A stretch of DNA of 64,000 bases from Brevinema andersonii. GTDB lineage: Bacteria > Spirochaetota > Brevinematia > Brevinematales > Brevinemataceae. The position numbers were made by a program, and so were the translations under genes. Of this stretch, positions 8,938 through 33,267 are shown piece after piece (within the stretch, counting starts at the first letter, position 1; every line of letters starts with the position of its first letter). The stretch spans positions 1-64,000 of the forward strand of contig NZ_FOKY01000003.1 in assembly GCF_900112165.1 (NCBI RefSeq), written 5' to 3'. The notes beneath the pieces were generated by a model, which worked only from the letters and a program-made list of their open reading frames with translations, was not told where the DNA came from and searched no databases.

Positions 8938-10679
8938 AAGTTACGCCCATCAAGAAATTTTATCGGATATATCTTTTACAATACATAAAGGGGAAAAAAT
9001 CGGATTAATCGGACGTAATGGGCATGGAAAAACTACATTAATCCGTCTTCTAACCGGTATAGAATCTCCGGATTCAGGAAATATTCTATTTCCAAAAGAT
9101 TATAAAATATCCTATTTGAAACAAGAGCTTAATTTTACAGAAGATACAATTCTCAATGAAGTATTATCCGCAATGCCTGATAATGAATCTAAAGAAATCT
9201 GGAAAGCAGAAAAACTCTTATTCGGATTGGATTTTTCCGAAGATTTGTTATTCCAACCACCTAAAGTTTTGTCAGGCGGTTGGATGAATCGTTTAAATCT
9301 TGCTAAAGTTCTAATCAGCAATGCAGATATGCTTTTACTAGATGAGCCTACAAATCATCTGGATATTGTGACTTTGCATTGGCTGATTGATTTCCTCAAG
9401 TCTTGGCGAAAAGAACTCATTATCATTTCCCATGACAAATCTTTCATCAATGCCGTCACCAACCATACTCTTGCAATTCATCGAAAAAAAATAAAAAAAA
9501 TGAAAGGCAGTGTCGAAAAAATGTATGAACAAATCACTTTGGAAGAGGAAGTACACGAAAAAACACGACTGAATAATGAAAAAAAACGTCAGAGTATGGA
9601 AGATTTCATTGATCGCTTTCGAGCAAATTCCAATATGAGCGGCAGAGTTCAATCACGTATAAAATCATTGAAAAAACAAGAAAATATCAAACAATTAGAA
9701 AAAATACACAATTTGGAATTCAAATTTAATTTCCAACCGTTTGAATATAAAAACATAGGCAAAGTTACCGATTTAACATTCGGTTATGATGATACCTTGC
9801 TTATTAAAGATTTATCGTTTGAAATCGAAAAAGGAGATAAAATTGCCATCATAGGTAAAAATGGAAAAGGAAAATCCACTTTATTAAAACTATTAGCTGG
9901 ACACTTACAGCCGATTTCAGGAGCTATTAAGCTTCATCCTAAATTACTATCAGGATATTACGGACAATTGGGAGAACTAGAACTTCATTCTGGCAACACG
10001 ATTGAAGAAGAAATTTTATTATCCATGAAGTCAGGGGATAAAAAAATAGCACGATCTCTAGCAGGTATTATGCAGTTTGAAGGGCCTCTTGCTTTAAAAA
10101 AAATTCATGTACTATCAGGTGGAGAAAAAAGCTCGTGTCCTCCTAGCGAAACTTATAGCTACACCAGTTCAATGTTTATTTTTAGATGAGCCTTCGAATC
10201 ATCTGGATATGCAGTCAATAGATTCATTAATTGAAGCGTTAGAGATTTTTCCAGGAACTTCTATTTTCGTATCTCATAATAGATCAATCCTCAATATAGC
10301 AACAAAATTAATCGTATTTGATAATAATATGCCTTATGTTTATCGAGGAACATATCCTGATTTTTTAGCAAATCATGGATTTGAATCAGAAAAATCTAGT
10401 AATAAAATAAAAGACAAGAAAAAAAAGAAAATACCACAAAATTCTAAAGAATCAAAAAAAATATTAAAACAAGAAATTCAAGCATTAGAAATGGATATTC
10501 ATCAAAAAGAAATAGAAACTGGAATTCTCCAAACACAATTAGTTGAAGCCAGTGTAACAAATAAAAGTGAAATGATCAAAACTATTACTAATAAAATAAA
10601 TATAATTAATGCAGAATTAGAAAAAAATTATATTTTATTATCTCAAAAATATGATACCTTAGAAAAATTTCAAGAATAA
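8912..10679 (+). pseudogene. ABC-F family ATPase with a single-base frameshift
   Basis: A soluble twin-ATPase ABC-F protein of Uup/YdiF type, acting on ribosomes. The first frame (8912-10189) carries Walker A GRNGHGKTT, signature LSGGWMNR, Walker B MLLLDEPTNHLD, the inter-domain helix with SGRVQSRIKSLKK, and second Walker A GKNGKGKST. It fails inside the second signature, LSGGEK. The rest (ARVLLAKLIA, CLFLDEPSNHLD, HNRSI and a lysine-rich coiled-coil tail) continues in another frame to 10679. The break is in a six-A run at 10125-10130; five A would restore LSGGEKARVLL. Joined, it would be about 589 residues, normal for the family. It may be a real mutation, a sequencing error in a homopolymer, or a gene rescued by slippage. 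The start overlaps pepT. Confidence 0.85.
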
Positions 10680-21474: not shown

Positions 21475-22893
21475 ATGAATATAATATTAAATATTTTTTC
21501 ATTTTTTACTAACAATATCCTTACGAAACCTGAATTCTTTATTGGCTTGATTGTACTTATTGGTTATATATTATTAGACAAACCCTGGTACGAGTCATTA
21601 AGCGGTTTTATTAAAGCAACAGTTGGTTACATGATTTTAAATGTAGGAGCTGGAGGTTTAGTAGTAACATTTCGACCTATTCTTGCAGGATTAAACGACC
21701 GTTTCAATCTAAATGCTGCTGTTATCGACCCATATTTTGGTTTAAATGCCGTTAACGCAGCTTTAGAAAGTGTTGGGGTCGTTACTTCGTATACTCTTAT
21801 TGCTTTACTTTTTGGATTTTTTTGGAATATTTTCCTAGTTGCTATGAGAAAATATACTAAATTAAGAGTCCTTTTTGTAACAGGGCATATTATGGTCCAG
21901 CAAGCAACTACAATAACTTGGTTAGTATTTTTTGCTGCTCCATCCCTTAGAAACACAACAGGCGCTGCTCTTGTAGGTTTATTAGTAGGAACTTATTGGG
22001 CTGTATTTTCAAATCTTACAGTAGAACCAACCGAAAATTTAACTGATAATGCTGGATTTGCGCTAGGTCATCAACAAATGCTGGCAGTCTGGGTAACAGA
22101 CAGAATTGCTGCAAAAATGGGAAATCCCGAAAAAAATCTCGAGAATATAAAATTACCTGGCTGGCTGCATATTTTTAATGACAGTATAGTTTCTTCAAGC
22201 ATTATTATGGTACTTTTCTTTGGAGTTATTATGAGTATTCTTGGTGAAGATTATATGCGACAGCTAGATAAAAATTTTGCTAACACAGTTTCTTTCCCTA
22301 TTTACATTCTATCCAAATCTCTCCTATTTGCTGTATATTTGCATATTCTGAGGGAGGGAGTACGAATGTTTGTTGCTGAAATGACTGAATCATTCCATGG
22401 TATTTCTAGTAAACTGCTTCCTGGTGTTATGCCTGGTGTTGATTGTGCTGCTACTTATGGTTTTACAACACCAAATACCATTTTATGGGGATTCATCTTA
22501 GGAGCTTCTGGTCAATTTATTGCAATTGCTGGTCTTTTAATATTCAAATCTCCTATCATGATCATACCAGGATTTGTACCGTTATTTTTTGACAATGCAA
22601 CCATTGCCGTGTATGCTAATAAAAGAGGAGGAATCCGTGCAGCAACTTTATTACCTTTATTTACAGGGATTTTCCAAGTTTTAGGAGGAGCATTTTGTGC
22701 TTGGTATTTCGAGCTCTATAAATATGGAGGTTGGCATGGTAATATTGACTTTTCAACTCTTTGGCTCGTTGCAGGAATATTTATTAAAGTAGCTCCCATA
22801 GCCGGATCTGTTACTTTAATTCTACTAATGCTTATTATTCCTCAGATTCAATACAAAATTTATAAAAACACTTACTGGAAACATGGAGAATAA
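21475..22893 (+). CDS. ulaA: ascorbate PTS permease, EIIC component
   Basis: A 472-residue polytopic inner-membrane protein of the PTS ascorbate-galactitol (UlaA/SgaT) family that carries L-ascorbate into the cell while it is phosphorylated. About ten to eleven hydrophobic segments are visible. Recognisable pieces are EFFIGLIVLIGYILL at the N-terminus, VGYMILNVGAGGLV, and DNATIAVYANKRGG. Length matches family (about 465). AAAGGAGG precedes the ATG. The stop precedes ulaB by about 20 bases. Confidence 0.93.
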   Translation: MNIILNIFSFFTNNILTKPEFFIGLIVLIGYILLDKPWYESLSGFIKATVGYMILNVGAGGLVVTFRPILAGLNDRFNLNAAVIDPYFGLNAVNAALESVGVVTSYTLIALLFGFFWNIFLVAMRKYTKLRVLFVTGHIMVQQATTITWLVFFAAPSLRNTTGAALVGLLVGTYWAVFSNLTVEPTENLTDNAGFALGHQQMLAVWVTDRIAAKMGNPEKNLENIKLPGWLHIFNDSIVSSSIIMVLFFGVIMSILGEDYMRQLDKNFANTVSFPIYILSKSLLFAVYLHILREGVRMFVAEMTESFHGISSKLLPGVMPGVDCAATYGFTTPNTILWGFILGASGQFIAIAGLLIFKSPIMIIPGFVPLFFDNATIAVYANKRGGIRAATLLPLFTGIFQVLGGAFCAWYFELYKYGGWHGNIDFSTLWLVAGIFIKVAPIAGSVTLILLMLIIPQIQYKIYKNTYWKHGE

Positions 22894-22912
22894 ACCATTT
22901 AAGGAGTATGTT

Positions 22913-23200
22913 ATGAAAATTTTAGTTTCTTGTATTAGTGGTATGGGATCAAGTCAAATGATTAAAATGAAAATTAACAATGTGTTAAAAAAATTAAACT
23001 TAACTGCCTCTGTGGATCACATGGCAATCGGAGAAGCTAAATCTGCAGCCAATAATTATGATGCTGTTTTTTGTTCACAGGCTTTAGTGGATAATTTTAA
23101 AGTATCAGGAAAAACTAAAATTGTAGGGCTTAAAAATCTACTTTCAGAAACAGAAATTGAAGAAGCTTTTAATAAAGCCGGATTAATACAGGGAGAATAA
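22913..23200 (+). CDS. ulaB: ascorbate PTS EIIB component
   Basis: A 95-residue cytoplasmic phosphotransfer protein. The phospho-cysteine P-loop appears as VSCISGMGSSQMIKM (Cys at residue 7), the place where UlaB/SgaB has C-G-x-G-x-GSS. AAGGAG lies just before the ATG at 22913; an upstream in-frame ATG at 22883 is inside ulaA and less likely. It would receive phosphate from an EIIA (UlaC), which is not encoded in this cluster. Confidence 0.9.
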   Translation: MKILVSCISGMGSSQMIKMKINNVLKKLNLTASVDHMAIGEAKSAANNYDAVFCSQALVDNFKVSGKTKIVGLKNLLSETEIEEAFNKAGLIQGE

Positions 23201-23201
23201 C

Positions 23202-23858
23202 ATGTCTATACCATTATTACAATTAGCTTTAGATAATACATCTCTTGAAGATGCATTAACAAGTACCCGAATTCTTGCTACAGAATTAGATATTATCGAA
23301 GCTGGTACGGTACTTATGACTACTGCAGGAACTCAAGCATTAAAAGCTTTACGTGCATTATATCCGGACCATATTATTGTTTCGGATATTAAAGTAGCAG
23401 ATGCTGGAGCTTTGTTGTCAAAAGTTATGATTGGAGAATCGGGAGCAAATTGGATGACGGTTATTTGTGCTGCACCATTAGCCACCTTTGAGACAGCACT
23501 AAAAGAAGCTAAAAAATATCCTAAAGGTGATATTCAAGCTGAATTATTTGGCAATTGGACATTTGAAGAGGCTGCAGAATGGAGAAAAATAGGCATTAAA
23601 CAGGCTATTTATCACAGAGGAAGAGACGCCCAAGCAGCAGGTCAAACATGGGGAGAAGATGATATCAAAAAAGTTTCCCAGTTGGCGGATATGGGATTTG
23701 AAATGTCCATAACAGGAGGCTTAGAAATAACTGACTTAAAATTATTTAAAGGAATACCAATTAAAGCATTCATTGCCGGAAGAACTCTAAGAGATGCACC
23801 TGATCCCATAAAGGCAGCCCAGAGTTTTAAAGAAGAAATGCATAAATGGTGGTCTTAA
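23202..23858 (+). CDS. ulaD: 3-keto-L-gulonate-6-phosphate decarboxylase
   Basis: A 218-residue TIM-barrel enzyme of the orotidine-phosphate decarboxylase superfamily, forming L-xylulose 5-phosphate and CO2. The Mg/catalytic motif is SDIKVADAGAL (about 60-70), with IEAGTVLM near residue 31 and the phosphate loop SITGGLEI and FIAGRTLRDA near the C-terminus. Length fits UlaD (216). It begins one base after ulaB ends and abuts ulaE, so it is tightly coupled. Confidence 0.93.
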   Translation: MSIPLLQLALDNTSLEDALTSTRILATELDIIEAGTVLMTTAGTQALKALRALYPDHIIVSDIKVADAGALLSKVMIGESGANWMTVICAAPLATFETALKEAKKYPKGDIQAELFGNWTFEEAAEWRKIGIKQAIYHRGRDAQAAGQTWGEDDIKKVSQLADMGFEMSITGGLEITDLKLFKGIPIKAFIAGRTLRDAPDPIKAAQSFKEEMHKWWS

Positions 23859-24728
23859 ATGTCTTGGATTGGATTATATGAAAAAGCTCTTCCTGATGAA
23901 TTTTCATGGAAAGAAAAATTATTAAAAACAAAAGAATTAGGATTCGATTTTATCGAGATATCAATTGATGAAAGTGATGAACGTTTAAGCAGATTAGATT
24001 GGTCTCTTGAGCAAAAAAGAGACTTAGTTTATTTATCTCAAGATATTGGAATTCCCATAATTTCTATGTGTCTTAGTGGCCATCGACGTTTTCCTTTTGG
24101 CTCAAAAAATCCTGATATTGTTGCTAAAGCTCGTGAAATTATGAATAAAGCATTTGATTTTTCTTTACATTGTGGAATTAGAAATATCCAAATGGCAGGA
24201 TACGATGTATATTATGAAGAAAGTACTATTCAATCCAAACAGCAATTTAAAGACGAATTAGCTCTTGCAGCAATAAAGGCTGCAGAACGGCAAATAATGA
24301 TTTCTATCGAAATTATGGATTATCCGTTCATGAATTCCATTACAAAATTTGATGAAATTACAGAACACATTCACTCACCTTGGCTCACTGTTTATCCCGA
24401 TGTAGGAAATTTAACAGCATGGTGGAATAATGTAGCTAAAGAATTAAAAACTTACATTTCAAGAATTTCTGCAATTCATCTGAAAGATACATTACCAATC
24501 GGACCAAATAATTTAGGTCAATTTAGAGATTTAGCTTTAGGTCAAGGAAAAGTAGATTTTATAGAAGTATTTCAAATTTTAAAAGAAGTAAATTATCAGG
24601 GAGCTTTTGTCATCGAACTATGGGCAAACGATGCTACACAATATCAAAAACAAATCATTGACTCTTTGAATCTCATCAAAAAAGCTATGCAAAATGCCGA
24701 TTATGTTCCTTATAGCTCGAAAAATTAA
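23859..24728 (+). CDS. ulaE: L-xylulose-5-phosphate 3-epimerase
   Basis: A 289-residue xylose-isomerase-like TIM barrel making L-ribulose 5-phosphate. Recognised by LGFDFIEISIDESDERLSRL (about 28-47), MCLSGHRRFPFGS, and AIHLKDT followed by ALGQGKVDF, where metal-binding residues lie. Length fits UlaE (284). It follows ulaD directly. It converges with a glycosyltransferase gene with 8 bases between the stops and no clear terminator hairpin. Confidence 0.92.
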   Translation: MSWIGLYEKALPDEFSWKEKLLKTKELGFDFIEISIDESDERLSRLDWSLEQKRDLVYLSQDIGIPIISMCLSGHRRFPFGSKNPDIVAKAREIMNKAFDFSLHCGIRNIQMAGYDVYYEESTIQSKQQFKDELALAAIKAAERQIMISIEIMDYPFMNSITKFDEITEHIHSPWLTVYPDVGNLTAWWNNVAKELKTYISRISAIHLKDTLPIGPNNLGQFRDLALGQGKVDFIEVFQILKEVNYQGAFVIELWANDATQYQKQIIDSLNLIKKAMQNADYVPYSSKN

Positions 24729-24736
24729 ATTTTATA

Positions 24737-25522
24737 TCATACTTTTTTTGAAAAACTTAATAAAAAAATCAATCTTAATAAATTCAGATGATGAGATAGA
24801 GACGTAATTTTACTGGGCACACTATCCTTCGGATACGCTCTTACGGTAGGAATTTCAATAATTTTATATCCTAAATGTTTAGCTTGTACAAGAGGATAAT
24901 AACAATATTCATAACTCTGATAAAAATCACTAAACCAGTTCATTTTAGGATCAAGAATAAATCTCCTTGAAAATGCTTTATAACCATTACAAGGATCTGA
25001 ATACCATCGCTTAGCACCTAAACTCACCATAGGGGAAGCAACAAATTTAATAGCTAATTCACGAAGAATAGGAGTATTAATCCCATACCCTCCTTTACGA
25101 TAACGCGTACCTTGGACCAAATCAAATCCTTGGCTAAGAGCATCTAAAAATAACGCCAAAGTATCTGTTATATTATCTTTATCATTACCATCAACCATAA
25201 TAACACCATGATATTTTTCCTTCATTGTTTCATAAAACCCAATTTTTAATTGAACAGCTTGACCTTGTTTTTTCTCATCTTTTTTAATAATCAAACCACG
25301 CGCACCATAAGATTTGACAATTTCAGGATTTGAAGAATCATCAATACTATTACCATCACAAATAAAAACATCACATAATTCAAAAATATTGGCTTCTTTC
25401 ATCTTTCTCATTTGAGAATGAAATCTCTCTGCTTCATTAAGCACAGGAATAATACAAGCATATATATTTCTTTTAGGAAAAAATATATGTTTTTCATAAT
25501 TTGCTAAAAATACATTCATCAT
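24737..25522 (-). CDS. family 2 glycosyltransferase
   Basis: A 261-residue GT-A protein resembling dolichyl-phosphate mannose synthase-type enzymes but without the membrane tail. The donor site shows IIPVLNEAERF near residue 25, FICDGNSIDDS, and VMVDGNDKDN as the metal-binding DxD-like element. Further on are QGTRYRKGG and DPCNGYKAFSR. It probably adds a sugar to a polyprenyl-phosphate carrier or a surface glycan (inference). The start codon overlaps the stop of the upstream membrane protein (ATGATGA), so translation is coupled. Confidence 0.8.
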   Translation of the reverse strand: MMNVFLANYEKHIFFPKRNIYACIIPVLNEAERFHSQMRKMKEANIFELCDVFICDGNSIDDSSNPEIVKSYGARGLIIKKDEKKQGQAVQLKIGFYETMKEKYHGVIMVDGNDKDNITDTLALFLDALSQGFDLVQGTRYRKGGYGINTPILRELAIKFVASPMVSLGAKRWYSDPCNGYKAFSRRFILDPKMNWFSDFYQSYEYCYYPLVQAKHLGYKIIEIPTVRAYPKDSVPSKITSLSHHLNLLRLIFLLSFSKKV

Positions 25523-27177
25523 GACACCCTTTTATTCTGCATTAGTGTGAGTGGAATGGATATTACACCTAAAAAAATACCCATCCAAAAATAACGATAA
25601 TCGGTAGAAGGAGATACCCAAAATAACAAAAAATTATTTACTACCCAAGGAAATAAAATAATAAGATTTTTCCAATCACCATAAATAATCCAATAAATAC
25701 TACAAAAAATAAGAAATAAAGTGTTCATCCAGAGAGGAAAAATTATTAAATTAATATCATTTAATCTACCAAAAATATTTCTTATTTTATTTATAATAGG
25801 ATTATCAAAACGAGAAATTATACCAGCACTTTTAGGCATTCCTATAAAAGGTGTTAAAAACATTTGAGTTTGACTGTTCCAAAAAGGATCCCAAAAATTC
25901 AATCTTGTTCTAAAATGTATCAGAGGAGATCCTGCCCATAATTGCCAATAATATTCAAAATACTGCTTTTTGGAAGCAACTCCTTTTTCTAAAGTAGCTA
26001 AAGATTCAGGGGATGCTTCCCTGACTTCCCAAAAAAAATTATTCACAAAAGATGTTCCATAATTTTTCCATATACCTTCATTAATAGTTTGAGCAAATTT
26101 TCTTACATTCGGATGCAAATGATCTTGCACGCCATACAAATATGCTGTATTAATAGGCATAAAAATCATATTATTTCTGTTATTCGTTACAGAACTCTTA
26201 TGAACATTTAATACCCTATAAAGCATGCCATAATTTAGTAACAGCACCAACATACAAGCAAACAGCGGAAGCCAAAAAATTTTAAAAGACCGATGAACAA
26301 AAGCAAAACATAAAAGTATTAGAATTCCTATGAAGCTTATTACAATACCATTAATTCTAAAAACCGTAGATAATCCAAATAAAATTCCTATATTTACAAG
26401 TATATAAGTTTTTGTACGGTATCTCGGATAAAGTATAAAATTTAACATAAAATAAACAAGCCCAAGAATAACAATAGTAAAAGGAATGTCCTTCCAAAGC
26501 GTTACAATCATAATACCAGTATTGGGCATGGCAACTATCGCCCCAAACAGACTTTTAATGAATTTACCAGACAGTCCTTGCTGATAGAAAAAATTCATCC
26601 AAACAGCCATAATCCATGAAAACATAATAAGTTGAACCAGACTAATAATAGCAGGAGTATCCCATATTTTTATTAATATTTTCTGAATAAAAGTGTAGGC
26701 AATACTATGATAATCTGTTATATAATTATTCTTTATTTCTTCCCATGTCTCAAAAGAATCAGCAGACATATTTGCCGGAAAAAAAATGATCCAATAGACA
26801 AGTCCAATCATCAGTATCAAAAAAAATGATTGCCAAAAGAACTTAGGAGATGGTGATATACGAGGACTATAAAAAAATTGAGTCAGCAACTGATGTGTCA
26901 CAATGAAAAGTCCAATATAAGGAATAATTAATGACGACCATAACATAATAAACAAAATGAGATTCTTAATGGAAAATATAACAAGTTTATTTACAGGAAA
27001 AAATAGTTCCGTCAAGCTCAATGAACATGCTGTACAAAAAGATAAAAAAACTACTAACCAAAATACATACTTAGAAGGATCATAAATATTTACATAAGTT
27101 TGAAGAGAATGATATTTTATTAATAAAAAAATAGTGATAGAAATAATACTAAAAATAGTAATTAATAGATATATCAT
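25519..27177 (-). CDS. polytopic membrane protein, DUF6020-like
   Basis: A 552-residue protein with about twelve hydrophobic segments. A conserved loop after the third to fifth helix reads FFPANMSADSFETWEEI followed by DYHSIAYTFIQKIL. That arrangement (FPG/A..S.DS, then an H in a short loop) resembles DUF6020 and other GT-C-like membrane proteins that use polyprenyl-phosphate sugars. A long extracytoplasmic stretch of about 100 residues lies near 335-440, where it contains RFAQTINEGIWKNYG. It forms a cluster with GT2 genes and a paralogue upstream. Function inferred: sugar transfer in surface glycan assembly. Confidence 0.65.
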   Translation of the reverse strand: MIYLLITIFSIISITIFLLIKYHSLQTYVNIYDPSKYVFWLVVFLSFCTACSLSLTELFFPVNKLVIFSIKNLILFIMLWSSLIIPYIGLFIVTHQLLTQFFYSPRISPSPKFFWQSFFLILMIGLVYWIIFFPANMSADSFETWEEIKNNYITDYHSIAYTFIQKILIKIWDTPAIISLVQLIMFSWIMAVWMNFFYQQGLSGKFIKSLFGAIVAMPNTGIMIVTLWKDIPFTIVILGLVYFMLNFILYPRYRTKTYILVNIGILFGLSTVFRINGIVISFIGILILLCFAFVHRSFKIFWLPLFACMLVLLLNYGMLYRVLNVHKSSVTNNRNNMIFMPINTAYLYGVQDHLHPNVRKFAQTINEGIWKNYGTSFVNNFFWEVREASPESLATLEKGVASKKQYFEYYWQLWAGSPLIHFRTRLNFWDPFWNSQTQMFLTPFIGMPKSAGIISRFDNPIINKIRNIFGRLNDINLIIFPLWMNTLFLIFCSIYWIIYGDWKNLIILFPWVVNNFLLFWVSPSTDYRYFWMGIFLGVISIPLTLMQNKRVS

Positions 27178-27194: not shown

Positions 27195-28847
27195 TTAGTT
27201 TTTTTTATTATGAATAAAAACCATACCTACCATGATAATAAGCATTGGCAACCCGATCCAAATATACCTATATTGAACCGCTGTTGAAGCAGCAAAAAGT
27301 GATAAAAAATTACAAAACCATGGCACTAATAGCCATAATTTTTGTTTATTTTGATAACACAAAATGTATAAAATGATGATCAATAACAAGAATGTATAAA
27401 ATCCACCTCCTATAAAGTATAAGATCGATTTTGTTTGTAAAAAATGATGAATTTTCATGATAAAATCAGGACGTCTGAAATGTATGTTAATATTAGGAGT
27501 TTCATAATTATTTGTTTTATCCAAAGTAGATACTAAATATAAACCAATTGCAGAATCAGGAATATTAATACTCCAAAAGTTGGCTATAAGATTCAAACGT
27601 GTTCTTAAATTCAATTTAAAATCATAGCGCCATAACGAAAAATATGTTAACATGATATCCTTTTTACTCATCTCATGATAAACTACAGAATTCCATCGTT
27701 CATTGGTTGAATTAAGTAAAAATAATGGTACATTATGAAAAGGATTAACAGGGCAGGATTCATTCGAAGTACTTATCCATTGGACTGTATTACCACTCTT
27801 TTCCACCCAATCCCGAGCAGCTGGAGAATGCAATCCTGATCGATAAATATAAGAATTACTAATAGCCGTTACCACAAGAGAAGGCAAATTTTTACTTCTA
27901 TCTGGCCCTGTTTTTGTTAAAGTCCATATTGTCTGATAAGCGGTATAAGATATAATCAATCCTAAAAAAAAGTATAAAATTTTACGTTTAGTTGGACGGT
28001 AAAATAAAATAAAAATAATGATCCCTACAACAACTATTATGCCGTTTTGCCTGAAAAAATGTACTAATGGTGTCACTAGGCCAAATATAAAAATTAATCT
28101 TCGATCGTAACGGTCATTAAAAACAATCTGATAAATAAAATATACTAACCAAACAATAACAAGGCTATAAGGAACATCACGGAAAAGATTGACTATAAAA
28201 ATCGCTACAGGAGGATATAAAGCAAATAATCCTGATGTAATCCATATAATTTTTCTTGAAATTTTTTTTCGATAAAACTCAGTAGTCCATAAACTAAATA
28301 CCCAAGCGGCAAATAATACTTGACTTAAAATAGGGAAAAAAGGATTAGGAATAATTTTATAAAATATATTTAAAATCCATAAGAAAAAAGCAGAAAAATA
28401 ATTATTAAATTTTTTATATACAATAGAATGCAATAAGAAGAAAGAATCAACATTAAAAATTCCCGGAAATACAAGAATCAAAAAAACAGTCCAAATAATC
28501 GCAAACATTATAAAAGATTGACAAAAAAAAATTTTTATGTGTATCGAATCTATTTTTTCTTTACCCTGAATCAAACGGCTTTTTAGTAAATCAATTAAAA
28601 TAAAAATACTAATAATAAATGCAGACATTAATATTGTCATGATAACAAAAACTAAAATTCCTAGCGGACTAACCATAAAAATTGCATCTTTTGGTAGAAA
28701 AAAATTATATCCTAAAACAGAGAATGATCCATACATCCCTAACAACAATATCCATAAAATTTGACGACGATAATTTAATATAGCATCTTTATTCAACAAT
28801 AGGATAAAACCAGAAAATAATATAATATATAATATAAATACTTCCAT
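27195..28847 (-). CDS. polytopic membrane protein, DUF6020-like, paralogue
   Basis: A 550-residue protein with the same plan as its downstream neighbour: about twelve membrane segments, the loop LVFPGIFNVDSFFLLHSIV, a helix-rich core with NLFRDVPYSLVIVWLVYF (compare TLWKDIPFTIVILGLVYF in the neighbour), and a large outer loop near 330-440. The shared R/KD-[IV]P block shows common ancestry. It starts in a TAATG overlap with the GT2 gene upstream. Likely a GT-C-type glycosyltransferase or glycan-handling protein; no acceptor can be named. Confidence 0.65.
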   Translation of the reverse strand: MEVFILYIILFSGFILLLNKDAILNYRRQILWILLLGMYGSFSVLGYNFFLPKDAIFMVSPLGILVFVIMTILMSAFIISIFILIDLLKSRLIQGKEKIDSIHIKIFFCQSFIMFAIIWTVFLILVFPGIFNVDSFFLLHSIVYKKFNNYFSAFFLWILNIFYKIIPNPFFPILSQVLFAAWVFSLWTTEFYRKKISRKIIWITSGLFALYPPVAIFIVNLFRDVPYSLVIVWLVYFIYQIVFNDRYDRRLIFIFGLVTPLVHFFRQNGIIVVVGIIIFILFYRPTKRKILYFFLGLIISYTAYQTIWTLTKTGPDRSKNLPSLVVTAISNSYIYRSGLHSPAARDWVEKSGNTVQWISTSNESCPVNPFHNVPLFLLNSTNERWNSVVYHEMSKKDIMLTYFSLWRYDFKLNLRTRLNLIANFWSINIPDSAIGLYLVSTLDKTNNYETPNINIHFRRPDFIMKIHHFLQTKSILYFIGGGFYTFLLLIIILYILCYQNKQKLWLLVPWFCNFLSLFAASTAVQYRYIWIGLPMLIIMVGMVFIHNKKN

Positions 28848-29770
28848 TAATTTTTTTCCTCTACATTGAGATAAGCATAACGACGTTGTTCAAAAGTATT
28901 CCGTTGAATATAGTGGATCATCAATCCTGTAGTTAATAAAAGTAAAGATAACAAAAGAAAAGTCACAGCAAAAATCAATGTAGGAAAACGAGGAACAGCT
29001 GATATCTTAAGAAATTCAATCCAAATATCTATAATCCAATATAGTCCTAATATCCCAAATATTGAAGCAATACCTCCGAAAAAGGTGATTGGTTTTTCGT
29101 TTGTGAAGAGATAAATTATTGTTAATAGGATTCTTATCCCATCTTTTATTGTATGAAGCTTGGATACAGAACCTATCGGTCTCGCTCGATAAGGTATTTG
29201 AATTTCACTTGTGGGCAACCTCATTTGATAAGCAAAAATACTCAATTCAATTTCTATTTCAAATCCTTTTGAATGTCCCGGAAAACTTTTCGCATATCGT
29301 TTTGAAAATAAACGATATCCGCCAAGAATATCCGAACATTTATTTTGAAACAAAAAATTTGCCAAACCAGTAAGAATTTTATTTCCCCAAGCATGCCCAT
29401 ATCGATACGAACTTTGCGAATCCGCCACTCTTATTAAATTTAACATATCTAAATCTTCAGAAATAAATTTTTTCAGTGCATCAGGAATAACTTTCATATC
29501 ACATTGATCATCCCCATCAGCAATAATATAAATGTCCGCATCAATTTTTGTAAAAGCATAACGAATTACATTCCCTTTGCCTTGATAAGTACAATTATAA
29601 ACCGTTGCTCCAGCCTTTTCAGCCAACTCAGCTGAATTATCCGTACTATTATTATTAATAACATAAATAACAGCATTAGGAATAGTAGATTTACAATCTT
29701 TTACCACCTTTACAATTGTCAATTCCTCATTATAACACGGAATAATAACAGCAATACGCCTTGGTTGCAC
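28847..29770 (-). CDS. family 2 glycosyltransferase with C-terminal membrane segments
   Basis: A 307-residue protein resembling polyprenyl-phosphate glucose/mannose synthases. Motifs: VIIPCYNEELTIVKVV (about 8-23), VINNNSTDNS, YIIADGDDQCDM (the DxD metal site), and the acceptor region LGGYRLFSKRY. Two or more hydrophobic helices follow after residue 225 (FGGIASIFGILGLYWI and TFLLLSLLLLTTGLMI), anchoring it in the inner membrane. GTG start with a GGGGG ribosome site. It would supply a lipid-linked sugar to the two GT-C-like proteins downstream (inference). Confidence 0.82.
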   Translation of the reverse strand: MQPRRIAVIIPCYNEELTIVKVVKDCKSTIPNAVIYVINNNSTDNSAELAEKAGATVYNCTYQGKGNVIRYAFTKIDADIYIIADGDDQCDMKVIPDALKKFISEDLDMLNLIRVADSQSSYRYGHAWGNKILTGLANFLFQNKCSDILGGYRLFSKRYAKSFPGHSKGFEIEIELSIFAYQMRLPTSEIQIPYRARPIGSVSKLHTIKDGIRILLTIIYLFTNEKPITFFGGIASIFGILGLYWIIDIWIEFLKISAVPRFPTLIFAVTFLLLSLLLLTTGLMIHYIQRNTFEQRRYAYLNVEEKN

Positions 29771-29827: not shown

Positions 29828-31093
29828 TTATCGAAGATCACTGAGAAAAATAACATTTTCACCTAATAGTCCTCTTTCATACATTTCTGGTAACGGAGCA
29901 TACATTTCATTAACATCATTATAGAAAAAAAACTTTTTTAAATTAGTTGAAGTCGTCATGTATAATGATGAAGCGTAGCCACCTATTACAGATATTTTAT
30001 CAGAATAAAACCATAATATTGCTTCCATAGGAAGAACACCAGGCAATGTAATAACGTCAGGAGGGCTTTGGTTATACGCTGGATGAGGTTTGAAAAAATA
30101 AGCATATGTGGGACCATAATATTTTTTCACCAAAGCTACATATTGATCTGTTTCATCTCCATAAGGATTTTTCCCAGTAATAATAACATTACTTCGACCG
30201 GTATCAGTAAAAGCCTGGTCTATTGTTTTCCCGCCTAGTTGCTGATAGGTTTGAGTTAGTTTAAGCATATTCTTTAAAGAATTCTGTTCTGCCACAGGTA
30301 AAGCTGTATATAACTTATAAGGATTTAATTTCCAAATATTTTTATTATGCTGAACGGAAAGATTTTTAAAAAGAGACAAACTTTTTGTACCCAATAACTC
30401 AGGCCACTGCAGAACTAAAACTGCATTTTGTGAAACAAAAGGAACAACCGGAAAACTATAGCACCAAGAATCGATAAAGGAGCTCCCCCCTATTTTTTTA
30501 TATTGTTGGTAGATATTACTAATAGCTTTTACATCACGGTTCCAAACTGTTTCGCCATTAGCAGCTCCATAAGAATTTTTAAAAGTCACATATGTTTGTG
30601 TCCCATCAGATAATAATCTTAAAAATACATTATCTTCACTTACTCCATTTTCAAAAAATAAAGAAACAATAAGATCCGCACGTATATCATCAACAAAAAA
30701 CGTATAAGTCGCATCAGGATGACTCGCTTGAAGCTCCTTAACTTTATTTTTAAATATTTGAATAGCGTCTTCATACGAAGATCCTAAAGCCAACATTTGT
30801 ACATGTGCAGGAAGATAATTAGTATCATAAGTAGCTTTGCGTTCTGAATATAGAAATGATTCTTGAGTATGAGAAAACATATTAAGAGCTATATAAAGTG
30901 CTGGAAGTGTTGCTCTCGTAAAATAGAAAACATAATCAGAATTTGGAACCCATGCGGATCTTTCAGGTTCAATACCAGTAATAGGATAATATGTCTTTAT
31001 ATTACCTTTATTAGGATTATTTACTTCATTTTTTGCCGAGCATCCAGATAAAAATAACAATAATATACTATATGCGATATAACGTTTTAACAT
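29828..31093 (-). CDS. lipoprotein resembling GT80 sialyltransferases
   Basis: A 421-residue protein with a lipoprotein signal (LLLFLSGC, Cys at 18). The body matches the layout of GT80 bacterial sialyltransferases. VFYFTRATLPALY (about 55-67) corresponds to the D/T-R/H-A-[ST]LP block. LLSDGTQTYV (SDG at 162-164) aligns with their YDDGSxEYV motif. FKPHPAY (335-341) matches the KGHP motif, and YASSLYMTTS (373-382) the SS motif. The ending GENVIFLSDL also fits. Spacings between the three motifs are close to those of Pasteurella multocida PmST1. Photobacterium GT80 enzymes are also lipoproteins. The first acidic residue of D/E-D/E-G is Ser here, so the donor may differ from CMP-sialic acid. No neuA/neuB in this window. 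Confidence 0.65.
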   Translation of the reverse strand: MLKRYIAYSILLLFLSGCSAKNEVNNPNKGNIKTYYPITGIEPERSAWVPNSDYVFYFTRATLPALYIALNMFSHTQESFLYSERKATYDTNYLPAHVQMLALGSSYEDAIQIFKNKVKELQASHPDATYTFFVDDIRADLIVSLFFENGVSEDNVFLRLLSDGTQTYVTFKNSYGAANGETVWNRDVKAISNIYQQYKKIGGSSFIDSWCYSFPVVPFVSQNAVLVLQWPELLGTKSLSLFKNLSVQHNKNIWKLNPYKLYTALPVAEQNSLKNMLKLTQTYQQLGGKTIDQAFTDTGRSNVIITGKNPYGDETDQYVALVKKYYGPTYAYFFKPHPAYNQSPPDVITLPGVLPMEAILWFYSDKISVIGGYASSLYMTTSTNLKKFFFYNDVNEMYAPLPEMYERGLLGENVIFLSDLR

Positions 31094-31266: not shown

Positions 31267-32217
31267 ATGTTAAGTATTGTAGTTCCGGTTTATAACACAC
31301 AAAAATATCTTCGAGAATGTTTAAATAGTTTGGTCAATCAGACTTTAAAAGATATCAAAATCATTATTGTGAATGACTGTACTTTGGATAATAGTGAAAA
31401 AATAATTCTAGAATATGCTTATAAAGATTCTAGAATCACTTATATCAAACATAAAGTAAATCTCGGGTTAGGAGGAGCTAGAAATACTGGTATTAAAGCA
31501 ACAAAAACACCCTATATCACATTTGTTGATAGTGATGATTTCTTGTCTCTTGACTGCTATCAAAATATGATAGATCTAATAAAAAGCAATAATGCCGATT
31601 GCGGCGTATTTTCTGCAGAGAATTTTGACGATGAAACAGGAGAAATATTAGATAATCCTTATTTCGACCTAGCTGACAAAGTAGAATACTGCACAGAAAG
31701 GAATATTTTTTCTTTTACTTCTACCGCTTGGAATAAAATTTTCAAAACAGATGATATCACAAAAAATAATATATGGTTTCCTAACCACCTCTACCATGAA
31801 GATGAAGAATTTTGGTTTAAATATGCAGTAAAAGTACAACCACTTATTGTTTCTAGCAATACACCTTATTACTATTATCGTAAACGCAGCAATTCAATTA
31901 CCAGTAATAATCTTGTTTCGTGGAAAGACCTTCCTGAAATTTTATCGAACACTTATAATTTTTTGATAGAAGAAAATTTATTTCAGCAATATAAATATGC
32001 ATTTTTAGTAATGCTTCAAGGATTTTATTTGCACAAAGCCTGTTTCAAAAAAAGTGATTTAAAAAAATTCGAACATAAGTTTCATTTTTTGCTCAAAGAA
32101 TTGAATTTAAAAGAAGAGAAAAGTACAAAAGAAAAATTAATCATTACCATGAAAAAACTTAAAATCTATCCTATCATTCATGCAGCATATCACATACTGA
32201 AAAAATGCAAGGATTAG
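31267..32217 (+). CDS. family 2 glycosyltransferase
   Basis: A 316-residue soluble GT-A enzyme. MLSIVVPVYNTQKYLRECL forms the nucleotide-sugar fold start, IIVNDCTLDNS the second strand, LGGARNTGIKAT the conserved loop, and FVDSDDF (about 88-94) the metal-binding DxD motif. YHEDEEFWFKYA near 180 carries the likely catalytic acid (ED pair). This type is common in capsule, LOS and glycoprotein clusters. A Lys-rich C-terminus may associate with the membrane. It has a perfect promoter and pairs with the next gene. Confidence 0.85.
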   Translation: MLSIVVPVYNTQKYLRECLNSLVNQTLKDIKIIIVNDCTLDNSEKIILEYAYKDSRITYIKHKVNLGLGGARNTGIKATKTPYITFVDSDDFLSLDCYQNMIDLIKSNNADCGVFSAENFDDETGEILDNPYFDLADKVEYCTERNIFSFTSTAWNKIFKTDDITKNNIWFPNHLYHEDEEFWFKYAVKVQPLIVSSNTPYYYYRKRSNSITSNNLVSWKDLPEILSNTYNFLIEENLFQQYKYAFLVMLQGFYLHKACFKKSDLKKFEHKFHFLLKELNLKEEKSTKEKLIITMKKLKIYPIIHAAYHILKKCKD

Positions 32218-32220
32218 ATT

Positions 32221-33267
32221 ATGGCTCCGATTATTTCTGTTATTATTCCTTTATATAATAAAGAACAAGATCTACCAAGATGCATAGAAAGTATTCTTTC
32301 ATACACCAGACATCCGATAGAAATCATTATTATTGATGACGATTCAACCGATAAAAGTTGGAATCTGGCACAGACTTATTGTCAACAGGATCCTAGAGTC
32401 CGAGCTTTAAAACACCAGTATAATAAAGGTACATATGCTACACGCGAAACCGGTATCAGAGCAGCATCCGGACAATATATATTTTGCGTAGATCCTGATG
32501 ATTGGATTAATAATAAAAGTTTTGATGCAGCTATACCTTATATCAAGAAAAATATCGATATTATTGTTACTGAATGCGTCTTTCTCTATCCCTATCACAA
32601 AAAATATTATAAACATGAGGACCAATTTCTCAAAAATGAAGAAATTCTTAACGCTTACACTTCACTTCGAATAGAATTATGGAATATGATACCAAAATTT
32701 ATCAAAACAGAACTAGCTTTGCACGCACTTAATGAGTTAAATATTAATAAATATTTAACCATGAGTGAAGATTTGTTATTATTCTTAACAATTTGTATTT
32801 TTGCCAAAACATGGTGTAGTATTAAGATTAAAGCTTATTACTATTGGATTAAAGGTGAAGACAGCGCTACTACAGGCAAGAAAAAAATGGATAAAATATT
32901 ACAATATATCGAACAAACTAAATATATACTATGCTGTTTGGAAGAAATTTTTGAAAAATATGGACATCCAGCGGATCAGCTTATCCCTATAAAGATGGCA
33001 CTATTTAATTTTTACCGTAATCAAATGGAAACATCAGAATTAGATGATAAATCACAAACTATTATTATAAAACATATGTTTGATTGTGTAGGAATACTGA
33101 ATGCATATAAATCGATGCTCACCTATGGAGTCAATACAGATTTTACAAGCTCCATCCGAATGCTCAATCAATTATTACCTGCTGGTTCTATAAGAAGAAA
33201 AATCATAAAAACAATTACAAAAAAAATATGGTCTTTTTGTCGTTTTTTAAACTCATTCAAGAATTAA
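32221..33267 (+). CDS. family 2 glycosyltransferase
   Basis: A 348-residue GT-A enzyme starting 3 bases after its neighbour. Motifs: SVIIPLYNKEQDLPRCI, IIDDDSTDKSW, ATRETGIRAASG, CVDPDDW (the DxD motif, about 90-96). MSEDLLLFLTI near 180 supplies the likely ED catalytic pair. It shares the general plan with the preceding gene but little detailed similarity by eye, so different linkages are likely. The C-terminal 100 residues are basic and helical. Confidence 0.85.
   Translation: MAPIISVIIPLYNKEQDLPRCIESILSYTRHPIEIIIIDDDSTDKSWNLAQTYCQQDPRVRALKHQYNKGTYATRETGIRAASGQYIFCVDPDDWINNKSFDAAIPYIKKNIDIIVTECVFLYPYHKKYYKHEDQFLKNEEILNAYTSLRIELWNMIPKFIKTELALHALNELNINKYLTMSEDLLLFLTICIFAKTWCSIKIKAYYYWIKGEDSATTGKKKMDKILQYIEQTKYILCCLEEIFEKYGHPADQLIPIKMALFNFYRNQMETSELDDKSQTIIIKHMFDCVGILNAYKSMLTYGVNTDFTSSIRMLNQLLPAGSIRRKIIKTITKKIWSFCRFLNSFKN

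What the first reader, a model, noticed from the sequence alone, without database searches (positions are those of the whole stretch)
29828..31093. Lipoprotein with the three motifs of GT80 sialyltransferases
The protein has a lipobox and, in order, SDG, KPHP and ASSLY motifs, with spacing close to PmST1-type GT80 enzymes and matching flanking blocks (TRATLPALY; GENVIFLSDL). Photobacterium GT80 enzymes are also lipoproteins. The first acidic residue of the D/E-D/E-G motif is Ser, so donor choice may differ. It sits in a glycosyltransferase cluster, suggesting a lipid-anchored glycan-capping enzyme on the envelope.
Basis: partly seen in the sequence, partly recalled or inferred. Interest (0 to 1): 0.68.

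Follow-up and report, generated by a model that had tools for sequence, protein, structure and literature searches.

The report
Surface-anchored relative of bacterial sialyltransferases
This gene encodes a lipid-anchored protein from a largely unannotated branch of the bacterial (GT80) sialyltransferase group whose members almost all sit outside the cell membrane, where the CMP-sugar that such enzymes need is not normally found, so either these bacteria decorate glycans with sugars picked up outside or the enzyme works in a way not yet described.

Summary
Window 29828-31093 is on the MINUS strand: an intact 421-aa lipoprotein (lipobox LSG-C18) with S162-D163-G164, K335-P-H337-P338, E357 and S375-S376. 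Alone it matches no Pfam or NCBIfam model, and the three motifs are weak evidence (51 of 20,000 shuffles reproduce them). A profile from it and two relatives finds, in the whole PDB, only GT80 sialyltransferases as significant hits (E=5e-9); a six-member profile hits eleven PDB sequences at E<=1, all GT80. The AlphaFold model (pLDDT 77, pTM 0.78) is GT-B, with GT80 enzymes as its four best PDB matches. The GT80 relationship is real but distant. 'SDG' is not an oddity: Ser/Thr stands there in nearly all 41 family sequences, and the catalytic base (second position) is kept. K, H, P and E are invariant. The surprise is location: 38 of 40 members with a visible N-terminus, from Spirochaete-like, Bacillota and Actinomycetota genomes, carry an export signal, several with surface-anchor domains. 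Most Gram-positive carriers lack a NeuA-like gene. The window's genome has NeuA, NeuB and a normal cytosolic GT80, but no NeuC. Most likely: an extracytoplasmic, cytidine-nucleotide-dependent glycosyltransferase; sialic acid as donor sugar is plausible but unproven.

The parts
29828..31093 (-). GT80-related lipoprotein, 421 aa (P0001); ATG start, AGAATGG upstream of the start
31040..31093 (-). Lipoprotein signal peptide MLKRYIAYSILLLFLSGC, lipobox L-S-G-C18
   Evidence: read from the sequence; same pattern in the orthologue L003 and many relatives
30602..30610 (-). S162-D163-G164: D163 corresponds to the PmST1 catalytic base D141; [ST]DG is the family signature
30080..30091 (-). K335-P-H337-P338 (HP motif; H337 corresponds to PmST1 H311)
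   Evidence: K 41/41, H and P 40/40 in the family; residue roles from PMC4202792 and PMC5517516
30023..30025 (-). E357: corresponds to PmST1 E338 / MhPST E323 (ribose of CMP)
   Evidence: 40/40 in the family; role
29966..29971 (-). S375-S376 (SS motif, phosphate of CMP)
   Evidence: S376 in 37/40
28847..29770 (-). GT2 polyprenyl-phosphate sugar synthase-like protein (AglJ/GtrB type) with C-terminal membrane segments; starts 57 bases after the lipoprotein gene
   Evidence: Pfam Glycos_transf_2 2.8e-21, NCBIfam AglJ 9.9e-46 below cut-off; TM segments
27195..28847 (-). Polytopic membrane protein, weak DUF6020 match; possible GT-C enzyme
   Evidence: 15.7 bits, below cut-off; 10 TM-like segments
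25519..27177 (-). Second polytopic membrane protein, possible GT-C enzyme
   Evidence: no family match; 11 TM-like segments
24737..25522 (-). GT2-type glycosyltransferase (weak AglJ-like match), last gene of the same-strand run
   Evidence: NCBIfam 3.1e-09 below cut-off
31267..33267 (+). Two divergent GT2 glycosyltransferases (31267-32217, 32221-33267)
   Evidence: Pfam Glycos_transf_2 9.9e-37 and 8e-33

Best explanation
The gene encodes an envelope-anchored, GT80-related glycosyltransferase. Shown by sequence: export signal and lipobox; intact reading frame; distant but specific homology to GT80; conservation of the residues that bind CMP and catalyse transfer in GT80. Inferred: outside the cytoplasmic membrane it binds a cytidine nucleotide-sugar through K335/H337/P338, E357 and S375/S376, and D163 deprotonates the acceptor for an inverting transfer onto a glycan of the envelope or of a neighbouring or host cell. 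A nonulosonic acid (sialic-acid type) is the first candidate sugar, because the genome carries NeuA- and NeuB-like genes. The weakest step is how a CMP-sugar reaches the outside: it may be scavenged, or the enzyme may run the CMP-dependent reverse reaction known for GT80 (removing sialic acid with CMP and passing it on). Its operon partners (polyprenyl-phosphate sugar synthase plus polytopic membrane proteins) point to a surface glycan assembled on the outer side of the membrane.
For: Three-sequence profile hits only GT80 in the PDB as significant (4r9v 5.1e-9, 4r83 6.2e-8). Six-sequence profile: 11 hits at E<=1, all GT80. hhalign with the genome's own bona fide GT80 protein: full length, 97.5% probability, E 7.9e-12. 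AlphaFold pLDDT 77 / pTM 0.78; the four best PDB matches are GT80 (2zwi 8e-14, TM 0.66-0.74). K 41/41, H/P/E 40/40, D base 39/41 across the family; roles of these residues. Export signals in 38 of 40 members with a visible N-terminus; surface-anchor domains. Own-genome PF11477 protein, NeuA-like nearest PpNeuA 1e-39 and a CMP-Neu5Ac synthetase 3e-36, NeuB-like. CMP-stimulated sialidase activity of GT80 enzymes (PMC4521712).
Against: No external CMP-sugar pool is known for such a cell. NeuC (PF02350) was not found in the genome, so full de novo Neu5Ac synthesis is not shown. The acceptor-side Trp270 region of PmST1 is not conserved (own reading; Trp270 recalled from memory). Most Gram-positive carriers lack a strong NeuA-like gene. 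The paralogue on contig C18 and L071 lack a signal peptide. The good model came from an alignment that included one true GT80 row, which may have pulled it towards GT80; the model without it was GT-B-like but poor.
Confidence: 0.6

Rival explanations
1. The family uses another cytidine donor (CDP-ribitol or CDP-glycerol type, or CMP-Kdo) rather than a CMP-sialic acid.
For: An IspD/TarI-type cytidylyltransferase lies beside the family gene in three distant genomes: L007 (same cluster), L071/L084 and L082 (adjacent); a TagF-type enzyme is also in the cluster in L007 and L082. Strong NeuA-like matches in only 2 of 30 mostly Gram-positive carriers. Gonococcal Lst, a CMP-sialate enzyme, can also use CMP-Kdo (PMC8092323).
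Against: Sequence links are to GT80, not to TagF or Kdo transferases. Only 3 of the 28 neighbourhoods examined show this partner, and TarI may serve the TagF neighbours. The window's own genome does have NeuA and NeuB.
Confidence: 0.2
2. The protein is a surface lectin or pseudo-enzyme that kept the nucleotide/sugar cleft but no longer transfers sugars.
For: Extracytoplasmic location without obvious donor; lectin and cell-wall-binding domains in relatives; some members (L074, L076) have lost SDG (SEG, HAG).
Against: The residues needed for CMP binding and catalysis are the most conserved ones of the family, which a mere glycan-binding role would not require.
Confidence: 0.12
3. The protein is an ordinary sialyltransferase that works in the cytoplasm; the N-terminal segment is only a membrane anchor or is not processed.
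For: Lst, once reported as surface exposed, was later assigned to the cytoplasm (PMC8092323); the C18 paralogue lacks the segment.
Against: Clear lipobox here and in the orthologue; 38 of 40 relatives have export signals of different kinds, several with SLH, ChW or choline-binding anchors that make sense only outside.
Confidence: 0.08

Closest known systems
GT80 sialyltransferases (PmST1/PM0188; Photobacterium ST 0160, PDB 4r9v/4r83; Pfam PF11477)
   Same: GT-B fold, order and spacing of D-G, K-x-H-P, E, SS; conserved C-terminal blocks; significant profile match over the C-terminal half, weak N-terminal match
   Different: No family member tested reaches PF11477 alone; first acidic residue is Ser/Thr; almost all members are exported; other acceptor-side residues
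GT52 (Neisseria Lst) and GT38 polysialyltransferases (MhPST)
   Same: HP and D/E-G logic; shared CMP-binding contacts; structural matches to 2yk6 and 5wcn; one relative (L044) has a sub-threshold polyST match (0.0015)
   Different: No significant sequence match in the PDB; weaker structural scores than GT80
TagF-type CDP-glycerol glycerophosphotransferases (PF04464)
   Same: GT-B enzymes with an HP and an SS element using a cytidine donor (own knowledge); neighbours of the family gene in L007 and L082
   Different: No sequence match between the two families in any search

Membership tests
GT80 / PF11477 | Significant sequence similarity to characterised GT80 enzymes | tested here: met
   Only with a family profile: E 5.1e-9, 5e-8; single sequence: none
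GT80 / PF11477 | Match to PF11477 above its gathering score (25 bits) | tested here: not met
   No match at E<=1 for P0001; none for the relatives tested; the genome's other GT80 scores 102 bits
GT80 / PF11477 | [DE]-[DE]-G motif with catalytic Asp | tested here: not met
   S-D-G: first position not acidic, catalytic second Asp present; functionally the base is kept
GT80 / PF11477 | HP motif, ribose-binding Glu, SS motif | tested here: met
   H337, P338, E357, S375, S376; near-invariant in the family
GT80 / PF11477 | GT-B fold like PmST1 | tested here: met
   Predicted model, four best PDB matches GT80; prediction only
GT80 / PF11477 | Transfer of sialic acid from CMP-sialic acid | not testable with these tools
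   needs an assay
GT52 / GT38 | Significant sequence match to family members of known structure | tested here: not met
   No GT52 or GT38 chain at E<=1; structure matches weaker
Bacterial lipoprotein | N-terminal positive residues, hydrophobic stretch, lipobox ending in Cys within the first 40 residues | tested here: met
   MLKRYIAYSILLLFLSGC; acylation itself not testable

The most novel reading that the evidence does not exclude
An exported family of GT80-like enzymes, spread over Spirochaete-like, Bacillota and Coriobacteria genomes and mostly uncoupled from the cell's own CMP-sialate synthesis, performs glycan remodelling outside the cell, for example CMP-dependent trans-sialylation of host or neighbour glycans or use of scavenged CMP-sugars.
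Probability: 0.3. Interest if true: 0.82.

Novelty: new variant of a known kind. Interest (0 to 1): 0.56.

Why it matters
Leloir glycosyltransferases are expected where their nucleotide-sugar donors are, in the cytoplasm. A widespread family with a preserved CMP-type active site but exported and fixed to the surface raises a sharp, testable question: what is its donor outside the cell? If it acts on host or microbial glycans it would be a new route of surface sialylation or desialylation in gut and host-associated bacteria, and a source of new enzymes for glycan synthesis. It also exposes an annotation gap: the members tested match no Pfam or NCBIfam model for this domain.

Tried and rejected
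Single-sequence searches in Pfam, NCBIfam and PDB gave only noise. A first genome-contig scan with the single protein and a viral-contig scan found nothing. The first AlphaFold model (3 rows) was too poor to use: pLDDT 53, best matches NeuC-type epimerases. The BFVD search gave only generic GT-B hits. The profile of the Gram-positive members alone does not reach GT80 in the PDB; the link goes through the window's group. Repeat tracts near the gene were looked for in the window and not found. The tree joins GT80 with a long-branch member; that join is unreliable, so I do not claim monophyly of the exported group. Literature searches for secreted or surface sialyltransferases of bacteria of this type returned nothing relevant among the papers listed. 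The species could not be named with the tools; 'Spirochaete-like' is my inference from gene content.

Full report
Observation. The ORF lies exactly at 29828-31093 but on the minus strand. It has 421 codons, an ATG start preceded by AGAATGG, and an N-terminus MLKRYIAYSILLLFLSGC with a lipobox. The motif triple with PmST1-like spacing occurs in 51 of 20,000 shuffles of the same residues, so the motifs alone would not carry the claim.

Single-sequence tests. P0001 has no meaningful match in Pfam, NCBIfam or the PDB.

Family tests. The same genome holds a paralogue (contig C18, 33% identity), and a genome of the same family holds an orthologue that is also a lipoprotein (38%). A profile of these three finds in the whole PDB only Photobacterium GT80 sialyltransferase as significant (E 5.1e-9 and 6.2e-8; next hit 0.14). 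Adding three distant relatives (L006 Coriobacteriaceae, L007 Bacillales, L008 Ruminococcaceae MAGs) gives 11 hits at E<=1, all GT80, among them PmST1 entries. The profile of the window's group aligns over the full length with the genome's own bona fide GT80 protein (hhalign E 7.9e-12) and with the Gram-positive group (E 1.7e-27). The Gram-positive group alone does not reach GT80, so for it the relationship rests on the link through the window's group.

Fold. AlphaFold with seven rows gives pLDDT 77 and pTM 0.78. Foldseek's four best PDB matches are GT80 enzymes (E 8e-14 to 3e-12, TM up to 0.74), then generic GT-B proteins at 5e-7 and weaker. One of the seven rows is a true GT80, which may favour this outcome; the model without it was GT-B-like but poor.

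Active site. In PmST1, Asp141, His311, Glu338, Ser355 and Ser356 matter for catalysis (PMC4202792). In MhPST, E153 is the base, E152A is about 300-fold worse, E323 holds the ribose, H291 and S339/T340 the phosphate (PMC5517516). The same paper equates PmST1 S143 with MhPST T155, which puts D141 at the second position of the motif. In P0001 the counterparts are D163 (base), T165, K335, H337, E357 and S375/S376. Over 41 family sequences K335 is 41/41, H337, P338 and E357 40/40, D163 39/41, S376 37/40. The position before the base is Ser or Thr in nearly all of them, so SDG is a family signature, not a peculiarity of this protein. Two members (L074, L076) have lost the canonical motif and may be inactive.

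Location. Profile searches found relatives in 24 of 397 genomes of the order of L006, 5 of 394 of the order of L008, and 13 of 393 of the window's phylum. Of 40 members whose N-terminus is in hand, 38 carry a signal peptide, lipobox or membrane anchor by a simple heuristic; the exceptions are the C18 paralogue and L071. The heuristic's split between lipobox and ordinary signal peptide is rough, and a few of the 40 are near-identical sequences of close relatives. Anchor or binding domains include ChW repeats, SLH, choline-binding repeats and ricin-type lectin domains.

Donor supply. The window's genome has an intact NeuA-like gene (G000:C2, L025:7532-8221; nearest solved relatives PpNeuA and a CMP-Neu5Ac synthetase), a NeuB-like gene (C12, L020:8120-9124), a second NeuB-like gene (C11), and a GT80 without a signal peptide scoring 102 bits on PF11477 (C1, L018:10498-11634). 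No NeuC-type epimerase was found, so complete Neu5Ac synthesis is not shown; the assembly is 95% complete. Among 30 mostly Gram-positive carriers only two have a strong NeuA-like match (131 and 97 bits); the others are weak and mostly in frames of other lengths, typical of other nucleotidyltransferases (my reading). So the exported enzyme is mostly not paired with home-made CMP-sialate.

Neighbourhood. In the window the gene starts a five-gene same-strand run: polyprenyl-phosphate sugar synthase-like GT2, two polytopic membrane proteins, and another GT2. GT2 proteins similar to the window's one lie near the family gene in at least five Coriobacteria loci (L096, L098, L101, L104, L105); no enrichment test was made. 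An IspD/TarI-type cytidylyltransferase is beside the family gene in L007, L082 and L084, which keeps CDP-alditol donors in play. In G001 the orthologue is followed by a decayed C-terminal remnant of a PF11477 GT80 gene.

Mechanism. Best supported: an anchored, extracytoplasmic inverting glycosyltransferase with a cytidine-nucleotide donor site. Shown: export signal, homology, conserved residues. Inferred: activity, donor, acceptor. The donor problem could be solved by scavenging or by the CMP-dependent reverse reaction: Photobacterium GT80 enzymes have sialidase activity strongly raised by CMP (PMC4521712), and certain GT80 enzymes are reported as trans-sialidases (PMC4202792). A caution: the claim that Neisseria Lst is surface exposed was later contradicted (PMC8092323), so location needs direct proof.

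Verdict. It works like a GT80 by fold and active site, but should not be filed as a plain GT80 member, because PF11477 and the acidic first motif position are not met. It is a new variant of a known kind, interesting mainly for the exported family.

Noticed in passing
L022 (G000:C1:196000-214000), about 4.4-13 kb: A nonulosonate/heptose-type sugar cluster (neuA-, neuB-, gmhA-, hddA-, gmhB-like and GT pieces) broken into many short frames; looks like a decaying gene cluster.
   Followed up: partly
L021 6649-7815 and 9111-10208 (minus strand); L022 14673-15314: Reading frames ending in long RERERERE runs, i.e. (GA)n dinucleotide tracts, in or beside sugar genes; probable phase-variable switches of surface glycans.
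   Followed up: no
L004 about 9700-9940 (minus strand): Remnant of a PF11477-type GT80 gene with an internal stop directly downstream of the P0001 orthologue in G001.
   Followed up: partly
L079 8101-8640, L080 6289-6822, L082 7976-8530: A small secreted protein of about 180 aa sits directly upstream of the GT80-like gene in several genomes of family f49 of the same phylum; function unknown, perhaps a partner.
   Followed up: no
L082 10336-11049, L084 8436-9149, L007 984-1694: IspD/TarI-type cytidylyltransferases next to GT80-like genes in three distant genomes.
   Followed up: partly
L086 8255-11106 (same genome as L074): Tandem GT80-like genes with altered catalytic motif (SEG in one); possible pseudo-enzymes or enzymes with another donor.
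   Followed up: no
window 21475-24728: Ascorbate-type PTS and sugar-phosphate genes (UlaA/UlaB/UlaD/UlaE-like by eye), ordinary carbohydrate uptake operon.
   Followed up: no
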